The position numbers were made by a program, and so were the translations under genes. Below, piece by piece: positions 8,699 to 56,810 of a stretch of DNA of 64,000 nucleotides. The notes under the pieces are model-generated. The model made no database searches. It saw nothing but the letters and a program-made list of their open reading frames with translations, and was not told the DNA's origin. Origin of the DNA: Candidatus Aminicenantota bacterium (lineage in GTDB: Bacteria; Acidobacteriota; Aminicenantia; Aminicenantales; Aminicenantaceae); assembly GCA_030603565.1 (NCBI GenBank), contig JAUVXM010000002.1, positions 18,634 through 82,633 on the forward strand, written 5' to 3'. Numbering within the stretch: the first letter of the stretch is position 1; the number at the start of each line of letters is the position of its first letter.

Positions 8699-10723
8699 TT
8701 ACCGAGAAACCTTCACTATAGTTGTTGCGGACTTGGAAGGATCACTCTCGGACGTTGCTTGAAGAGTCACCGTAGCCATAGGGGCACCCCCGTCCTGTTG
8801 AGAGACATAGACTATAACCGGTTGGAATCTTCCCATCTCTACTGCAGCCAGACCGTTGAGCAGCCGGGCCGTCCACCCTTCTCCTTCCACAGAAACGGTA
8901 AGCCGATAGACATCAGAATTGACGTATGCACTTACGTCAACCGGATGCACTTTCGGTTCCGATCCTACAACAGTACCAGTATTATTCAGAGTAAATGAAA
9001 TAGGGGTGTTGGGTCGTTTGACTTTTTGTTCTGCCGGCCCATCAAGAACAACATCTCTTTCATGCTGGCCCGAGCCATCCAGGGACCGGACGGCCAGAGT
9101 GTAAGAGAGGATCCCATTCTTTTCCTTTTGAATGTCGATCACATAGAAATGCAGCCGATTTGGCGTATCTTCCCATTCAAACTCACTGCCCGAGTTGAGC
9201 CCTGCATGAAAAAGAGCATCGTTGAGCTGCCGGTAGTCGGCGATCGTGCGCATAACCTCTTCACCATTGGGCTTTACGTAGTCCACCATGTTTATATCTT
9301 CAGGGTGAGCGTCAATAACCCAGATGTAGCTGTTAAAGGCATTGGGACCGCCATTTCTGCCTCGCAGACTATCTTTATTCTTGGCAATAAGTACCCCATT
9401 ATCAGGAGTGAACGAGTCATAACCGATGCGCTGAACCACTTCCAGTGTATAGAAATTGTAGTTCGGAATCCCAGGAGAGAGCGGATTTATCGCCGGATCA
9501 TCCTCTGAAGTCCGGTCAAAGGGCTCCGCACCGTCAAGCCTGACTATGATGCCGGCAAAGGTGCCCGCTAGAGGATCCACCGCCCGTGCTGTGACTTGAG
9601 CTACGGCCAATCCGGATTGGGCCAGGCCATCCCTACTCAGAGTTAATATCTGGGATTCGGTAATAAAGCCGTTCTCCAGGCGGTTGCGCACCATTAGTCC
9701 TGCTGGCATCGCTGCCCCCTGAGTAGGCGGAACTACACAGCGCATGTGGGGTCCTCCCGGTCCGTTAAAACAGCCCCTGTCCATCATATCCCATGGACCC
9801 GCAGCAACTCTCCGGTATGGTGTAACATAGGGATTGTTATTGAGGTCGGGTAGACGAAACGCATAATGACCGAGCTCGTGAGTGATAGTGCCGGAATTTT
9901 CTCCCTGACGCATGGACGACAGTCCCCACTGCTGTGAACCGGCCAACCAGCTCGTCCATTCAACGTACCGAGTCGTGATCCAGCGGGGCATGTCCGGATT
10001 GGGATTGCCCCACTCCGGCGGGATATCCTCGGGGGAATTGAACTTCATCTCGCCAAATTCCTGCCAGACACCCGTCTCATCATAACTTGCATACATGCGC
10101 AGAACGGCATCATAGTTTTTCCGAATGTCCTCCCCTATATCTTCAATCCAAATTGAATCACAATCCCGCTCCATGCGGCTGTTGGCGCGGCTGCCGTCGG
10201 GAGTTTGGTCATTCTGTCCATATTCATTAAGGCCGTAAGCCCAAATGGGTTTGGGCATGCGGTAAGGGCCAAAAACATCCACTTCGGTGACGCCGAACTT
10301 CCCCCGGGATTGCTCCATCCAGTAGCCGTTGATAGTCTGGCCGTTATTGACCTCACTTGGCGTCATGAAGAAGTCGGCATAGAACTGAGACACATTCTCC
10401 CTTTCTATGGGATCGATCTGTGGATTTCCGAAGGGATCTGATCCTTTGGGGAGGGTGACCACAAAAGGCTGGTCTGGAAAGTCGATGGCGAGTACTGCAA
10501 GACGAAAACCTCTTTCCGGTTTAAGTAAAGGATCTGCCCAATTGTGGTCGGGGATAGGGCGATAATCATCCCAAGTCATGAGGTCCTGGTCCTGAACCTG
10601 TTGAGGATCGATTGGCAACATGGATTTATGTCTACCATCTCCTATATTGCACGCGGCCAAAATTACAAAAGAAAAACACATAAAAACAAGAACAGGCGGG
10701 ATTTGTTTATAAGGCTTTGCCAT
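8699..10723 (-). CDS. secreted M6-like zinc metalloprotease (lipoprotein signal)
   Basis: GTITHELGHYAFRLPDLNN (HExxH); lipobox-like LAACNIG; 4 bp from the GH127 gene. Confidence 0.75.
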   Translation of the reverse strand: MAKPYKQIPPVLVFMCFSFVILAACNIGDGRHKSMLPIDPQQVQDQDLMTWDDYRPIPDHNWADPLLKPERGFRLAVLAIDFPDQPFVVTLPKGSDPFGNPQIDPIERENVSQFYADFFMTPSEVNNGQTINGYWMEQSRGKFGVTEVDVFGPYRMPKPIWAYGLNEYGQNDQTPDGSRANSRMERDCDSIWIEDIGEDIRKNYDAVLRMYASYDETGVWQEFGEMKFNSPEDIPPEWGNPNPDMPRWITTRYVEWTSWLAGSQQWGLSSMRQGENSGTITHELGHYAFRLPDLNNNPYVTPYRRVAAGPWDMMDRGCFNGPGGPHMRCVVPPTQGAAMPAGLMVRNRLENGFITESQILTLSRDGLAQSGLAVAQVTARAVDPLAGTFAGIIVRLDGAEPFDRTSEDDPAINPLSPGIPNYNFYTLEVVQRIGYDSFTPDNGVLIAKNKDSLRGRNGGPNAFNSYIWVIDAHPEDINMVDYVKPNGEEVMRTIADYRQLNDALFHAGLNSGSEFEWEDTPNRLHFYVIDIQKEKNGILSYTLAVRSLDGSGQHERDVVLDGPAEQKVKRPNTPISFTLNNTGTVVGSEPKVHPVDVSAYVNSDVYRLTVSVEGEGWTARLLNGLAAVEMGRFQPVIVYVSQQDGGAPMATVTLQATSESDPSKSATTIVKVSR

Positions 10724-11885: not shown

Positions 11886-11898
11886 GTTAACCTCCTAG

Positions 11899-12031
11899 CC
11901 TGAACTATTCATAAAAAATGTCGATGTTCATAATAAGCCTATTTATATCAAGATGTTGGATTAATTTAAAGGAAATTCATAATCACCATTTCATTTTCGA
12001 TGTAATCCCTGTTTATAATCGACATTTCTTA
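11899..12031. repeat. Dispersed repeat family, composite copy: R-arm CCTGAACTATTCATAAAAAATGTCGATG plus inverted TTTTCGATGTAATC...ATAATCGACATTTCTTA
   Basis: 11899-11911 matches the family terminus; 11994-12031 is 35/38 identical to 39609-39646. Confidence 0.7.
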
Positions 12032-12045
12032 CTCCGTGCCTAGTA

Positions 12046-13897: not shown

Positions 13898-15766
13898 TTA
13901 TTTCTTCTTTTCGCTTTTTAACTTAAAAACAACCGTCACTGTAAAAATCACACCTCTCGGCTTACCGTCGATCAAAAACGGTTCATAAACCCACTGCATG
14001 ACAGCATCAATGGCGGCTTGGTCAAGTTCAGGGATGGATCGCAGGATTTTTGTTTCTTGCACCCGGCCATATATGCCTGTTGTCGCTTCAAGGATGACGA
14101 CACCCTCAATGCCCTCTTTTCTGGCCTCTTCAGGATAGATCGGATCAACTCCTTCTATCCGCTTTGGCGGTTTGATGTCCCCAGTAGCCCTGACAGGACC
14201 ACCGGCTCTTGCTTCTGCTTCACCTACGACACCGCCGATTACACCGCCCACGACTCCTCCTTCTACTCCTGGCGCTTTAATCTGCTTCTTCTTTTCACTT
14301 TTTAACATAAACCGAACCGTCACTGTAAAAATCACACCTCTCGGCTTACCATCGATTATAAACGGTTCATAGACCCACTGCATGACAGCATCAATGGCGG
14401 CCTGATCAAGTTCAGGGATGGATCGCAGGATTTTTGTTTCTTGCACCCGGCCATATATGTCTGTTGTTGCTTCAAGGATGACGACACCTTCAATCCTCTC
14501 TTTTCTGGCCTCTTCGGGATAGATCGGATCAATTCTTCTTATCAGCTTTGGCGGTTTGATGTCACCAGTCGCTCTGACAGGTGCACTTTCCTCCTCTTTC
14601 TGTTTTTCCTTTTCCTGGAGAACATTATGACCAGTAATTTCATTGGAAGCAACTATTTCGGGCAGCACTTTGTTATCAACGGCTGCAAAGGTCAGTCGGT
14701 AGCCTGCCATCATGCCAATTAAAAGAAGTGATACAAAAAGAATCACTCCCACAGTCGATTTTTTTAATTGAGTTTCCATATTTCTCTCCTTGGATAAAAT
14801 GTTTTTTATTCTTTCTGTCAAAGGAATATGCGGAGAAACAATAGCAGCGGGAACCAGAAAATGGATGGAAAGGGATGTTTTTTCCGCTAAGTTGACCAAA
14901 CACTCTGCATATTCTCTTTTGTCGTTTTTTAAGAGGACATGATTATCTGATATTTCCTCTCTTGCTCTGGAGAAATCAGCACTTAAAGTATAGGCCAGAG
15001 GATTCCACCAATTTAGAATTAGAAAAATCCTCTGCAAAACTACTGTAATCTGATCTCGATGAAAAATATGGGACATTTCATGGAGCAGAACAACTCTCAA
15101 TTCTTTATCTCGCATTTTTTCTATTAAACCACGCGGGACAAGTATGAGTGGTTTGAAGAATCCCAATACTATTGGGCTGCTGACCTCTGAAGACTCAAAT
15201 ATCTTTATTTTCATAGATTTCTGAAAGGCCAGCTCAGCTTCTTCTAAGACCTGAGAAATTCTATAGTTTTTGACTTCAACAATACCTTTTTTCAAATTCT
15301 TAAGAGAAGAAACCCCGTATACAAAACGGAACAAAAGGAGCACTACTCCCAATCCCCAGAGGACACCAAAAAAATTAAGGGCTTTTATCACAAATGGTCC
15401 TGATCCAAATATTTTCTTGAATGTTTTTGATATGAGATTAGATGATATAATTGTATTTTCGTTAATAGCTTCGTCCGTTCCTGAAGCAGTGTTCAAGCTA
15501 TTTCCATCCACAAGAATGGGAGAAGAATCAAGCTCAAAAGGGAGTATGGTTTGAATAGGCTTTAATCCCAGTAAAGAAGAGGAAATTGTCAGGATAGGAA
15601 GAAATAAAAGGACCAGCATGATCATGAATACAATACCACTCCTCAGGGGAGCGGCCTTATGTTTTAAAAACTGTATGAACACCCAACCGATCCCTAAAAT
15701 GATTAAGGAGGGGAGAGCTATATTCAGGATCCCTTCGGCTGTTGATATGTCTTGCAGTATTTTCAT
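13898..15766 (-). CDS. M56 (BlaR1-like) membrane metallopeptidase with two tandem TonB C-terminal domains
   Basis: HEMSHIFHRD; two copies of GDIKPPK..IDPIYPEEARKE.IEGVVILEATT. Confidence 0.9.
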   Translation of the reverse strand: MKILQDISTAEGILNIALPSLIILGIGWVFIQFLKHKAAPLRSGIVFMIMLVLLFLPILTISSSLLGLKPIQTILPFELDSSPILVDGNSLNTASGTDEAINENTIISSNLISKTFKKIFGSGPFVIKALNFFGVLWGLGVVLLLFRFVYGVSSLKNLKKGIVEVKNYRISQVLEEAELAFQKSMKIKIFESSEVSSPIVLGFFKPLILVPRGLIEKMRDKELRVVLLHEMSHIFHRDQITVVLQRIFLILNWWNPLAYTLSADFSRAREEISDNHVLLKNDKREYAECLVNLAEKTSLSIHFLVPAAIVSPHIPLTERIKNILSKERNMETQLKKSTVGVILFVSLLLIGMMAGYRLTFAAVDNKVLPEIVASNEITGHNVLQEKEKQKEEESAPVRATGDIKPPKLIRRIDPIYPEEARKERIEGVVILEATTDIYGRVQETKILRSIPELDQAAIDAVMQWVYEPFIIDGKPRGVIFTVTVRFMLKSEKKKQIKAPGVEGGVVGGVIGGVVGEAEARAGGPVRATGDIKPPKRIEGVDPIYPEEARKEGIEGVVILEATTGIYGRVQETKILRSIPELDQAAIDAVMQWVYEPFLIDGKPRGVIFTVTVVFKLKSEKKK

Positions 15767-17454: not shown

Positions 17455-17463
17455 GCATGTACT

Positions 17464-17712
17464 TCAGAGCCCAGCCCAGAAAAGCAGCCTGGTCAGAAAA
17501 TAGGTGATCACTGCTACCGTAAAAAGGGAAGCAAGCGTGGGTATATATTTTTGCTTTTCCAGGTTATTTGCCAGAAGACCGGGAATTACCCAGCCTATAG
17601 CTTTTAGCTCAAAAGGGAATCTTTCATAAATATTAGCTTGTTTGGATTTATAAATGAAACTGCTTAAGGCTAAAACAATTACAATCAATAACGCTATTAT
17701 ATAATTTTTCAA
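17464..17712 (-). pseudogene. chimeric ORF: new N-terminal TM segment fused to duplicated PgsC C-terminus
   Basis: 17462-17615 is 148/154 identical to 19215-19368 (3' end of pgsC). Confidence 0.8.
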
Positions 17713-19180: not shown

Positions 19181-19210
19181 CCTGAATTATTCACGAGTCG
19201 AGGATGCCGC
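19181..19210. repeat. Dispersed repeat family, L-arm CCTGAATTATTCACGAGTCGAGGATGCCGC
   Basis: Match to the left terminus of the element at 52539. Confidence 0.7.
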
Positions 19211-19216
19211 TACCCT

Positions 19217-19657
19217 TCAGAGCCCGGCCCAGAAAAGCAGCCGGGTCAGAAAATAGGTAATCACTGCTACTGTAAAAAGGGAAGCAAGCGTGGGTATATA
19301 TTTTTGTTTTTCCAGATTATTTGCCAGAAGACCGGGAATTACCCAGCCTATAGCTTTTAGCTCAAAAGAGGCAGGAAAAATATGAGGAAGCACTAAAAAC
19401 CACAGCTGCGTCCATAATGCCCCCAAAAGCACAAGCATTACAAAACGCCTTTTTCCAAACAGAATAAGATAGCGGGATAAGAATTTATAACAATAAAGGC
19501 TCACAAAAGCGATCAGAACCGTTGCCAGCGCTCTTAACGGTTGGTCAAGGTAAAGGGCGATATAGGCAGGCACAATAATCCCGCCGGGATATATATCCAT
19601 AATCTCAATATAAAGAACTGCAACCACAAGGCCGATAAAAAATGTTTCATACTGCAT
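19217..19657 (-). CDS. pgsC: poly-gamma-glutamate biosynthesis protein PgsC/CapC
   Basis: MQYETFFIGLVVAVLYIEIMDIYPGGIIVPAYIALYLDQP; start reassigned from 19741 to 19657. Confidence 0.85.
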   Translation of the reverse strand: MQYETFFIGLVVAVLYIEIMDIYPGGIIVPAYIALYLDQPLRALATVLIAFVSLYCYKFLSRYLILFGKRRFVMLVLLGALWTQLWFLVLPHIFPASFELKAIGWVIPGLLANNLEKQKYIPTLASLFTVAVITYFLTRLLFWAGL

Positions 19658-30893: not shown

Positions 30894-30904
30894 AATTCCC
30901 TCCT

Positions 30905-30949
30905 AACCTGAACTATTCATAAAACTCAACTCGTGAATAATTTAGGCTA
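30905..30949. repeat. Dispersed repeat family, short hairpin form CCTGAACTATTCA-taaaactcaactcg-TGAATAATTTAGG
   Basis: Inverted arms 30907-30919 and 30934-30946; both family arms recognisable. Confidence 0.8.
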
Positions 30950-31007
30950 ATAATTCTTCTGTTATAATATATGTAAAAATAGTACAACAGAAAATAAAAA
31001 AGTTCAA

Positions 31008-39599: not shown

Positions 39600-39604
39600 T
39601 TCCT

Positions 39605-39664
39605 TTCGTTTTCGATGTAATCTATATTTATAATCGACATTTCTTATGAATAGTTCAGGTTAGA
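39605..39664. repeat. Dispersed repeat copy with R-arm TTATGAATAGTTCAGGTTAG
   Basis: TGAATAGTTCAGG 39647-39659; 39609-39646 is 35/38 identical to 11994-12031. Confidence 0.75.
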
Positions 39665-45603: not shown

Positions 45604-45669
45604 CTACCCCTATCCAGTAAATTTTATATCACCCATGGGTCAATTAGTCAATCATATTGTTTTCCCATT

Positions 45670-46401
45670 TTATTGTGATGAACCATTCCTGTCCGGTCCT
45701 TTGGAAAAAATTGCCAGTAATAAGTCCCTATCCTTTGCAGTTATAGCCATACGCCCGAACAAATCATGAACCATGCCGGTCACATGTGCATTATTTCCTG
45801 GATTGATAAATTTCTTTTCCTCCAATTTCTGCAAAATAAGCCTGATACACTCCTCTTGTTCCCAGCGGGGAAGCGGCTTTTTTTGGGCTGCCTGCATTTT
45901 ATTCGCCCCCGCTGTGCTGTAAATACTAAACAACGTAATCAACACCGCTGAAGCAAGATTATAGGAAGGCTGTGATGTTTCCTGCGGTATAGCAAATAGG
46001 AAATTGGAATGATACAACTCCTCTGATGTCAATCCGGTCCTTTCATTCCCAAAAAGAATGCCGATCCTGCTTTCTGGGGAAAACTTTAACATTTTTCTCA
46101 CAGCCTGCTTTAAAGAAAGGGAGGTATAGTTTTTTCTATGCCTAGCTGTAGCAGCAAACACGACATCCATATCAGCAACTGCTGTGGATATATCAGGATA
46201 AACTCCGGAATTATCTAAGATCTCTTCTGCATGAACAGCAGTAATATAAGAGTTTGGATCAATTGGTGTACCCAAGATAAGTCTTAATTCATTAAAACCC
46301 GTATTTTTCATGCCGCGGGCGACTAAGCCAATATTTTCAGGACTCGAAGGCCGGGATAAAATAACGAAAAAACTGCTCATTGCTTTATCCGGATTATTCA
46401 C
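45670..46401 (-). CDS. RNA methyltransferase, TrmJ/SpoU family
   Basis: FFVILSRPSSPENIGLVARGMKNTGF; IGILFGNERTGLTSEEL; IPQETSQPSYNLASAVLI. Confidence 0.92.
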   Translation of the reverse strand: MNNPDKAMSSFFVILSRPSSPENIGLVARGMKNTGFNELRLILGTPIDPNSYITAVHAEEILDNSGVYPDISTAVADMDVVFAATARHRKNYTSLSLKQAVRKMLKFSPESRIGILFGNERTGLTSEELYHSNFLFAIPQETSQPSYNLASAVLITLFSIYSTAGANKMQAAQKKPLPRWEQEECIRLILQKLEEKKFINPGNNAHVTGMVHDLFGRMAITAKDRDLLLAIFSKGPDRNGSSQ

Positions 46402-46463
46402 GAGTCACTGAAAAGAAATTAATAATAAAAACATCGCCATTTTTTTATGAATAGTTCAGGCTA
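46389..46463. repeat. Dispersed repeat family, 75-bp internally deleted copy
   Basis: Termini CCGGATTATTCACGAGTC and TTATGAATAGTTCAGGCTA; core aacatcgcca shared with 52539 copy. Confidence 0.85.
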
Positions 46464-46889
46464 ATACTTGCCAGTGCTCCCGAACCCGTTTTCTCCGCGG
46501 GTTGTATTATCCAATCCATCAACCTCGACTATCTCTACCTTTTGAACCGGCTGCACAAGAAGCTGGGCGATTTTCATGCCCTTATCAATAACAAAAGGTA
46601 TATCACCAAGATTTATCATCACAACCTTTACTTCTCCGCGATACCCGGAATCGACTACTCCAGCAAGGCGATGGACTCCATTGAGGGAAATTCCACTCTT
46701 ATCCCAGATCAAGCCGACATAGCCTTTAGGTAAAGCAATTTTTATCCCAGTCGGCACAGGGAAAGCCCGGCCTGGCTCCAAAATGCAATTATTCACAGAG
46801 AAAATATCCAGGCCGGCATCACCTTTATGACCGTAAACAGGCAGTCTGGCGTCCTTATGAACACGTTTTACTTTAAGTTCCATGCTCAA
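46461..46889 (-). CDS. dut: dUTP diphosphatase
   Basis: GDAGLDIFS; GLIWDKSGIS; GVVDSGYRGEVKVVMIN; RGENGFGSTGK. Confidence 0.95.
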   Translation of the reverse strand: MSMELKVKRVHKDARLPVYGHKGDAGLDIFSVNNCILEPGRAFPVPTGIKIALPKGYVGLIWDKSGISLNGVHRLAGVVDSGYRGEVKVVMINLGDIPFVIDKGMKIAQLLVQPVQKVEIVEVDGLDNTTRGENGFGSTGKY

Positions 46890-50092: not shown

Positions 50093-50145
50093 AAATGAAA
50101 TTAATAATAAAAACATCGCCATTTTTTTATGAATAGTTCAGGTTA
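50093..50145. repeat. Dispersed repeat family, R half
   Basis: gaaattaataataaaaacatcgccatttttttatgaatagttcaggttaa nearly identical to the R half of 46389-46463. Confidence 0.85.
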
Positions 50146-50197
50146 ATATTTTATCAAAAGATACAAACTATTTCTATATTTTTAAGACTAATTCAAA

Positions 50198-50827: not shown

Positions 50828-50866
50828 TTAACCTGACCTATTCATATCGTGAATAATCCAGGTTAA
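50828..50866. repeat. Dispersed repeat family, 39-bp hairpin form
   Basis: TTAACCTGACCTATTCA-tatcg-TGAATAATCCAGGTTAA, 14/17 paired. Confidence 0.85.
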
Positions 50867-51228
50867 GAAGGCATTATACTGCAAACAGGAAAGGCAGTAA
50901 AACCAGGAAAGACAGATAAAACAGGAAAAGCATCTTATTTTTATCCGCGAAAATCCGCGTCTAATGCTTTATCACTTTAATCCGTGTCCACAGCGTCCTC
51001 AGCGTAAAATTTTGTTTTTCTACTATATATTATTTTCCAAGTATCGCTTGCATCAGCAAACCTGATTTATCTATTTTCCCCCTTTCCCCCACATTTCACC
51101 ATTCACCATTCATATTTCACGGTATTTCTATTTTCCGCTTTTTTCCATTGAGAGAATGGAATTATTCCTATATTATAATTGATAGTTGACATCATTTTGA
51201 AAAATCAGAGCACGGAGGTTAATAGTCA

Positions 51229-52538: not shown

Positions 52539-52797
52539 CTAGCCTGGATTATTCACGAGTCGAGGTTGCTGCAGATGCAAGACACAGGGTATGAAGCTGT
52601 GGTCCTTCACCGCGAATGCCCTGTAACGAAGCAGGTGCTGTGAGATCGGCTCGCTCGGAGAGTAAAAAATGGCGATTAAAATTAAAAATAAAAACAAGAA
52701 AAAAGTTTCAATAATCATTGTTGAAAAAATCTTGCATGTCATTGAAAAGAAAATAATAATAAAAACATCGCTATTTTTTATGAATAGGCCAGGCTAG
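52539..52797. repeat. Dispersed repeat family, longest copy (259 bp, MITE-like)
   Basis: Terminal inverted repeats CTAGCCTGGATTATTCA / TGAATAGGCCAGGCTAG (15/17); no plausible ORF inside. Confidence 0.85.
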
Positions 52798-56662: not shown

Positions 56663-56771
56663 GACTCCTCCTTCTTTCATTTCATTCATAACAAATGCAA
56701 AAACCATGCCATTTTACTCCCCCTGAGAAGCACAAGCGACCTGTCCTTAAATAAGGACAACTGATAGCAAA

Positions 56772-56810
56772 GATGAACTATTCACGAATCGAGCTTGCCG
56801 TAGATGCGAT
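56772..56810. repeat. Dispersed repeat family, L-arm only
   Basis: GATGAACTATTCACGAATCGAGCTTGCCGTAGATGC resembles the left end of the 52539 copy. Confidence 0.6.

What the first reader, a model, noticed from the sequence alone, without database searches (positions are those of the whole stretch)
52539..52797. Two-armed, MITE-like dispersed repeat family; longest copy 259 bp
CTAGCCTGGATTATTCA...TGAATAGGCCAGGCTAG bounds a segment with no plausible gene. At least ten other intergenic sites share one or both ends (11899, 19181, 30905, 32361, 39605, 46389, 50093, 50828, 56772). The left arm continues CACGAGTCGAGG and the right arm continues (reverse strand) TATTCATAAAAAATnGCGATG, so the two ends are distinguishable and the element has polarity. 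The density, roughly one copy per 5-6 kb, suggests recent or continuing spread.
Basis: seen in the sequence. Interest (0 to 1): 0.8.

Follow-up and report, generated by a model that had tools for sequence, protein, structure and literature searches.

The report
Aminicenantes MITE family carrying structured RNA
The repeat is a real, once-mobile piece of non-coding DNA, present in hundreds of copies in a group of uncultivated bacteria (Candidatus Aminicenantes); each full copy carries an RNA hairpin that evolution has kept foldable on one strand only, so it is probably more than inert junk, although neither the enzyme that moves it nor what the RNA does is known.

Summary
The 259-bp segment is CTAG + a 251-bp element + CTAG. 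Its ends occur 539 times (up to one mismatch) in this 3.14-Mb genome and 0 times in the reversed control. The host is Candidatus Aminicenantes. Comparison with two ~93% identical genomes shows clean empty sites in which a 4-bp YTAR target is single when empty and double when filled. So this is a MITE-like transposable family, with 13-bp CCTGRAYTATTCA ends and several size classes: ~252 bp (two hairpins), ~146 bp (one hairpin), and 31-48 bp "minis" that look like internal deletions. New here: the left hairpin is conserved by compensatory change and only on one strand. In other genera 20 of 30 pairs covary, with 138 double-change cells against 40 in shuffles. The consensus fold is -44.9 kcal/mol on the + strand and -4.0 on the other. 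The hairpin is found in 34 of 38 genomes of the family. Between co-directional genes it lies in sense 45:15, with its right end a median 20 bp before the next start. No transposase with these ends was found. It is a new variant of a known kind (structured bacterial MITEs such as BOX, ERIC, Correia).

The parts
52539..52542 (.). left copy of 4-bp target duplication, CTAG
   Evidence: YTAR class established by empty sites
52543..52555 (+). left terminal inverted repeat CCTGGATTATTCA
52556..52658 (+). module A: long hairpin with conserved purine-rich internal loops, + strand fold supported by covariation
   Evidence: RNA model R1 hit, 114.8 bits
52664..52676 (+). 5' strand of module B stem (AAAAAATGGCGAT)
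   Evidence: pairs with 52767-52779; helix 6
52677..52766 (+). AT-rich loop of module B; open frame MAIKIKNK... present but without coding signature
52767..52779 (+). 3' strand of module B stem (ATCGCTATTTTTT)
52781..52793 (-). right terminal inverted repeat (reverse strand CCTGGCCTATTCA)
52794..52797 (.). right copy of target duplication, CTAG
30903..30950 (-). mini copy, 40 bp between CTAA repeats; absent in G002, which has a single CTTA
50828..50866 (-). mini copy, 31 bp between TTAA repeats; empty in G002 (L205)
46384..46464 (+). 73-bp deletion copy; present in G002, empty (single TTAG) in G001
11895..12042 (-). B-type copy (right-type arm first, then loop and second stem strand), right end decayed, CTAG on both sides
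39604..39663 (+). right arm plus part of B loop of a truncated copy
50093..50150 (+). right arm of a truncated copy
19181..19210 (+). left arm only, truncated copy
56768..56801 (+). left arm and start of hairpin A, truncated copy

Best explanation
It is a non-autonomous cut-and-paste (DDE-type) transposable element, a MITE. Shown: it inserts at 4-bp YTAR targets, duplicates them, and is bounded by 13-bp CCTGRAYTATTCA repeats. Inferred: the transposase acts in trans. Shown: the full copy is modular, with end + hairpin A + hairpin B + end. Copies lacking A are still found as lineage-specific insertions, so A is apparently not needed for movement. Inferred: 31-48-bp minis, each with its own junction, are remnants left when both hairpins are deleted at their bases (replication slippage favoured by the inverted repeats), not separate mobile units. 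Shown: hairpin A is kept by compensatory changes on the + strand only and lies mostly in sense orientation just upstream of the next gene's start. Inferred: A works as transcribed RNA, most likely a structured leader or intercistronic element in the mRNA (affecting processing, stability or translation, or making the insertion harmless) that favours survival of sense copies.
For: Ends: 539 in the genome, 0 in control. Empty sites with the target single: L039:18557-18702 (146 bp, TTAA) vs G002; L259:5452-5597 (146 bp, CTAT), L271:3654-3905 (252 bp, CTAG) and L150:4863-5125 (263 bp) vs the window genome; window 46388 (73 bp) vs G001; minis at window 30907 and 50832. Where both flanks are YTAR, 25 of 37 are identical against 11.0 in shuffles, maximum 21 in 2000 shuffles. 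Structure: 96.6% of cells paired, 22 pairs with changes on both sides (shuffled 9.1, slid 10-12); independent genera 20/30 pairs, 138 vs 40 cells. Strand: -44.9 vs -4.0 kcal/mol; hairpin more stable on + in 58 of 59 copies; G.U 151 vs A.C 28 in mainly Watson-Crick pairs, 166 vs 15 in other genera. Orientation 45:15, p 1.3e-4; right end to start median 20 bp vs 177 bp for the other end, p 2e-6. Family-wide distribution.
Against: No transposase gene with these ends was found in ~2.3 Mb read; IS701-type is absent from 60 relatives; G014, with ~200 ends, has no DDE_Tnp_1 match. No expression data exist, so transcription is not shown. The ORF caller was simple, and a few loci are orthologous between the two genomes. 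Sense bias could be purging of harmful antisense copies without any benefit from the RNA. A minority of pairs break.
Confidence: 0.72

Rival explanations
1. An ordinary MITE whose hairpins matter only for the DNA (cruciform or transposase binding); the paired changes come from quasipalindrome correction by template switching, with no RNA role.
For: Hairpins and terminal repeats are inverted repeats at DNA level; bacterial MITEs commonly fold this way (PMC10969869).
Against: Correction and cruciforms do not favour a strand, yet the fold exists only on the + strand (-44.9 vs -4.0 kcal/mol) and G.U outnumbers A.C 151:28 and 166:15. Single-stranded DNA of that strand would still fit. Copies without hairpin A are mobile.
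Confidence: 0.15
2. The polarity and sense bias reflect an outward promoter in the AT-rich right half that drives the downstream gene; hairpin A is secondary.
For: The right end lies a median 20 bp before the start of co-directional genes; Correia elements can create promoters (PMC3049150).
Against: No sigma-70-like site on the + strand of the window copy, and only chance-level matches; the B loop is the least conserved part and comes in at least two unlike versions.
Confidence: 0.2
3. The element encodes a small peptide (MAIKIKNK..., 39-42 codons, with a ribosome-binding-like GGAG before the ATG).
For: Frame open in most B1-type copies.
Against: No codon-position signature, and synonymous/non-synonymous counts equal random expectation; start codon missing or frame changed in some other genera.
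Confidence: 0.03
4. Minis (31-48 bp) are themselves mobile minimal elements rather than deletion remnants.
For: They have TSDs and clean empty sites (window 30907, 50832; L071:5463).
Against: Junctions differ from copy to copy, unlike an amplified family; a 31-bp duplex is too short to bring two DDE-bound ends together (general knowledge). In one site G002 has a 388-bp copy where G000 has only 12 bp between TTAG repeats.
Confidence: 0.1

Closest known systems
BOX elements of Streptococcus pneumoniae (PMC3049150)
   Same: Modular, intergenic, terminal repeats paired with each other in a tightly folded transcript, proposed MITE
   Different: Different host and different module plan (sequences were not aligned here); here YTAR TSDs are shown by empty sites, and strand-specific covariation is shown across genera
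ERIC and Correia/NEMIS elements (PMC2229807)
   Same: Non-coding, TIR-bounded, one long folded RNA, effects on neighbouring mRNA in an orientation-dependent way (ERIC)
   Different: TA-type termini; here 4-bp YTAR targets and two separate hairpin modules
CIR repeats of Caulobacter (PMC2229807)
   Same: Two long arms joined by a linker in the RNA model
   Different: Here the ends also pair, giving a three-way junction; no GANTC role tested
QMITE1/QMITE2 of Coxiella (PMC10969869)
   Same: Large size range down to 39 bp with conserved ends and direct repeats
   Different: Different host; no strand-specific covariation reported in the passage read
IS5-type insertion sequences (IS5, IS711)
   Same: Target motif YTAR (PMC10359306; PMC2266754)
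   Different: No IS with the CCTGRAYTATTCA ends found in these genomes; IS711 is described as duplicating only TA

Membership tests
Bacterial MITE | Shorter than 500 bp and non-coding | tested here: met
   31-390 bp; no coding signature
Bacterial MITE | Terminal inverted repeats | tested here: met
   13-bp ends, paired in 98% of cells
Bacterial MITE | Target site duplication | tested here: met
   Empty sites with a single YTAR; 25/37 identical vs 11 in shuffles
Bacterial MITE | High copy number, intergenic | tested here: met
   539 ends; no full copy lies inside a long ORF
Bacterial MITE | Mobilised by a related autonomous IS in the same host or lineage | tested here: inconclusive
   No partner found in ~2.3 Mb or by families PF13546, PF13586, PF01609; about half of the genome was not read
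IS701-derived MITE | DDE_5 (PF13546) transposase present | tested here: not met
   0 of 60 genomes
IS5-derived MITE | YTAR target | tested here: met
   motif from PMC10359306
IS5-derived MITE | Shared ends with an IS5-type element | tested here: not met
   PF01609 hits in the own genome have other ends; PF13586 found in 1 of 39 relatives only, none of the family
BOX / ERIC / Correia families | Sequence homology | not tested
   Not aligned directly; indirectly, no Rfam match and no plasmid or phage match
Known Rfam RNA family | Score above gathering threshold | tested here: not met

The most novel reading that the evidence does not exclude
Hairpin A is a bona fide undescribed structured RNA, spread by a MITE through Aminicenantia, that acts as a mobile leader or intercistronic regulatory RNA of the genes behind it, with conserved purine-rich internal loops as a protein or tertiary-contact motif.
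Probability: 0.4. Interest if true: 0.75.

Novelty: new variant of a known kind. Interest (0 to 1): 0.52.

Why it matters
Bacterial MITEs are usually said to fold as RNA on the basis of predicted energy alone. Here one family, spread across dozens of genomes of an uncultivated lineage, gives comparative evidence that evolution keeps one strand's fold. It also gives hundreds of natural insertions, some with known empty sites, so the question whether such repeats are parasites or portable RNA regulators becomes testable from metatranscriptomes. It may also explain why assemblies of these genomes break: many contigs end inside a copy.

Tried and rejected
IS1380-like transposase at C5 and the other PF01609 hits of the genome: their ends differ. 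IS701 (PF13546) and PF13586: absent from the family. ORFs bracketed by two ends 0.6-3.5 kb apart: all ordinary host genes. High-coverage contig L125 as a possible autonomous copy: host genes only. Rfam and tRNA: nothing. IMG/VR, plasmids, phages: no match. Tiny ORF: no coding signal. Literature: no paper in the held library describes this repeat in Aminicenantes.

Full report
What is there. Window 52539-52797 is CTAG, a 251-bp element, CTAG. The end consensus YTAR-CCTGRMYTATTCA occurs 261 + 278 times (up to one mismatch) in the 3.14-Mb draft genome that holds the window, and never in the reversed control. The same pattern is present in 35 of 38 genomes of the taxonomic family, sporadically in the order, and in none of 54 genomes elsewhere in the class and phylum. 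All 58 named GTDB stretches that hold the left arm are Candidatus Aminicenantes or Acidobacteriota MAGs. It was not found in viral contigs, plasmids or phages.

Size classes. In 1.47 Mb of the own genome and 0.69 Mb of sister genomes, paired ends fall into sharp classes: 250-255 bp (30 + 30), 140-149 bp (8 + 4), 30-48 bp (about 14 + 5), and a few others, some with foreign cargo in the loop of hairpin A. The 146-bp class is the full element without hairpin A. The minis keep 10-25 bp of each end and have different junctions.

It moved. Two genomes of the same genus (G001, G002) align at ~93%. At several sites one genome has the element between two YTAR copies and the other has one YTAR-like word and nothing else: 146 bp at L039:18557 (TTAA), 146 bp at L259:5452 (CTAT), 252 bp at L271:3654 (CTAG), 263 bp at L150:4863 (TTAG filled, TTAT empty), 73 bp at window 46388 (TTAG in G001), and minis at window 30907 and 50832 and L071:5463. 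Where both flanks are YTAR they are identical in 25 of 37 against 11.0 expected. The window's own copy is shared with G002 (97.6% identical), so it predates their split. This is shown directly; that a DDE transposase acting in trans did it is inferred from the TSD and the terminal repeats.

The fold. 59 full copies align over 263 columns. The consensus is a three-way junction: terminal repeats paired with each other, hairpin A (columns 14-115) and stem B (128-140 with 235-249). 96.6% of cells pair and 22 of 54 pairs have changes on both sides; shuffles give 9.1 +- 1.6 and slid structures 10-12. A covariance model of hairpin A finds it in many other genera, where 20 of 30 pairs have compensatory changes, 138 cells against 40 in shuffles (that alignment is fitted to the model, so it leans towards it). 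It is strand-specific: the consensus fold is -44.9 kcal/mol on + and -4.0 on -, hairpin A is more stable on + in 58 of 59 copies, and G.U exceeds A.C 151:28 in mainly Watson-Crick pairs and 166:15 in other genera. Copies without A still occur as lineage-specific insertions, so A's conservation is not explained by mobility. The model finds A in 34 of 38 genomes of the family and in two more families of the order; two matches outside the order are weak.

Context. In contexts where both neighbours point the same way, copies lie in sense 45 and antisense 15 (p 1.3e-4). The right end is a median 20 bp from the start of a following sense gene, against 177 bp for the left end and genes that start on that side (p 2e-6). 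Caveats: a simple ORF caller, some orthologous sites, and no expression data. Transcription-linked C-to-T change on the sense strand could add a little to the G.U excess, but not the swaps between G-C, A-U and the reverse pairs.

Mechanism. I commit to this reading: a MITE moved in trans to YTAR sites, carrying an RNA module that functions when transcribed with the host operon. Minis and ~15-bp palindromes such as TTAA-CCTGAATAGTTCAGG-TTAA (L268:8022) fit host-made deletions between the inverted ends, like the nearly precise excision of Tn10 (general knowledge). Movement and TSD are shown; the RNA-level constraint is strongly supported; its cis-regulatory role is inferred.

Known or new. Structured MITEs with orientation-dependent effects on mRNA are known (BOX, ERIC, Correia, CIR, QMITE: PMC3049150, PMC2229807, PMC10969869). 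YTAR is the IS5 target motif (PMC10359306), but no IS5-like partner with these ends was found. I found no description of this family. It is a new variant of a known kind, unusual for its strand-specific covariation across an entire lineage.

Noticed in passing
L205:1140-1270, L058:7460-7640, L217:11200-11330: A second dispersed inverted repeat of ~150-190 bp (GGCATGGACACKGGTAARTCCC ... GGGATTTACCMGTGTCCATGCC), also polymorphic between the sister genomes (present in G002 where window 45664-45683 has none).
   Followed up: partly
L205:6450-6570; window 50900-51130; L150:4863-5125: Repeats of the type TTTTTATCCGCGAAAATCTGTGTCCTCAGTGTCCACAGCGTAAA, found free and as cargo inside the loop of hairpin A in long elements.
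   Followed up: no
window 17462-17615 and 19215-19368: 154-bp direct repeat, 96% identical, 1.75 kb apart, next to a truncated left arm of the element at 19181.
   Followed up: no
window 13902-14201 and 14286-14585: Two 300-nt direct repeats, 91% identical, inside a 622-codon ORF on the minus strand.
   Followed up: no
L159:3162-3549 versus L175 ~8986-9007: Where G002 has a 388-bp copy, the window genome has only GAATAATTCAGG between two TTAG repeats: a possible near-precise excision footprint.
   Followed up: partly
G068, G077 (same order): Genomes with 18-25 copies of hairpin A but almost no exact terminal pattern, so the hairpin seems conserved where the ends are not.
   Followed up: no
G098 (same class, other order): Eleven weak matches to the hairpin model (best E 4e-6) outside the order; could be chance or a distant relative.
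   Followed up: no
contig ends of the own genome (e.g. C9:126, C20:126, C27:125, C52:124, C57:124): Many contigs end inside a copy of the element, i.e. the assembly breaks at it.
   Followed up: no
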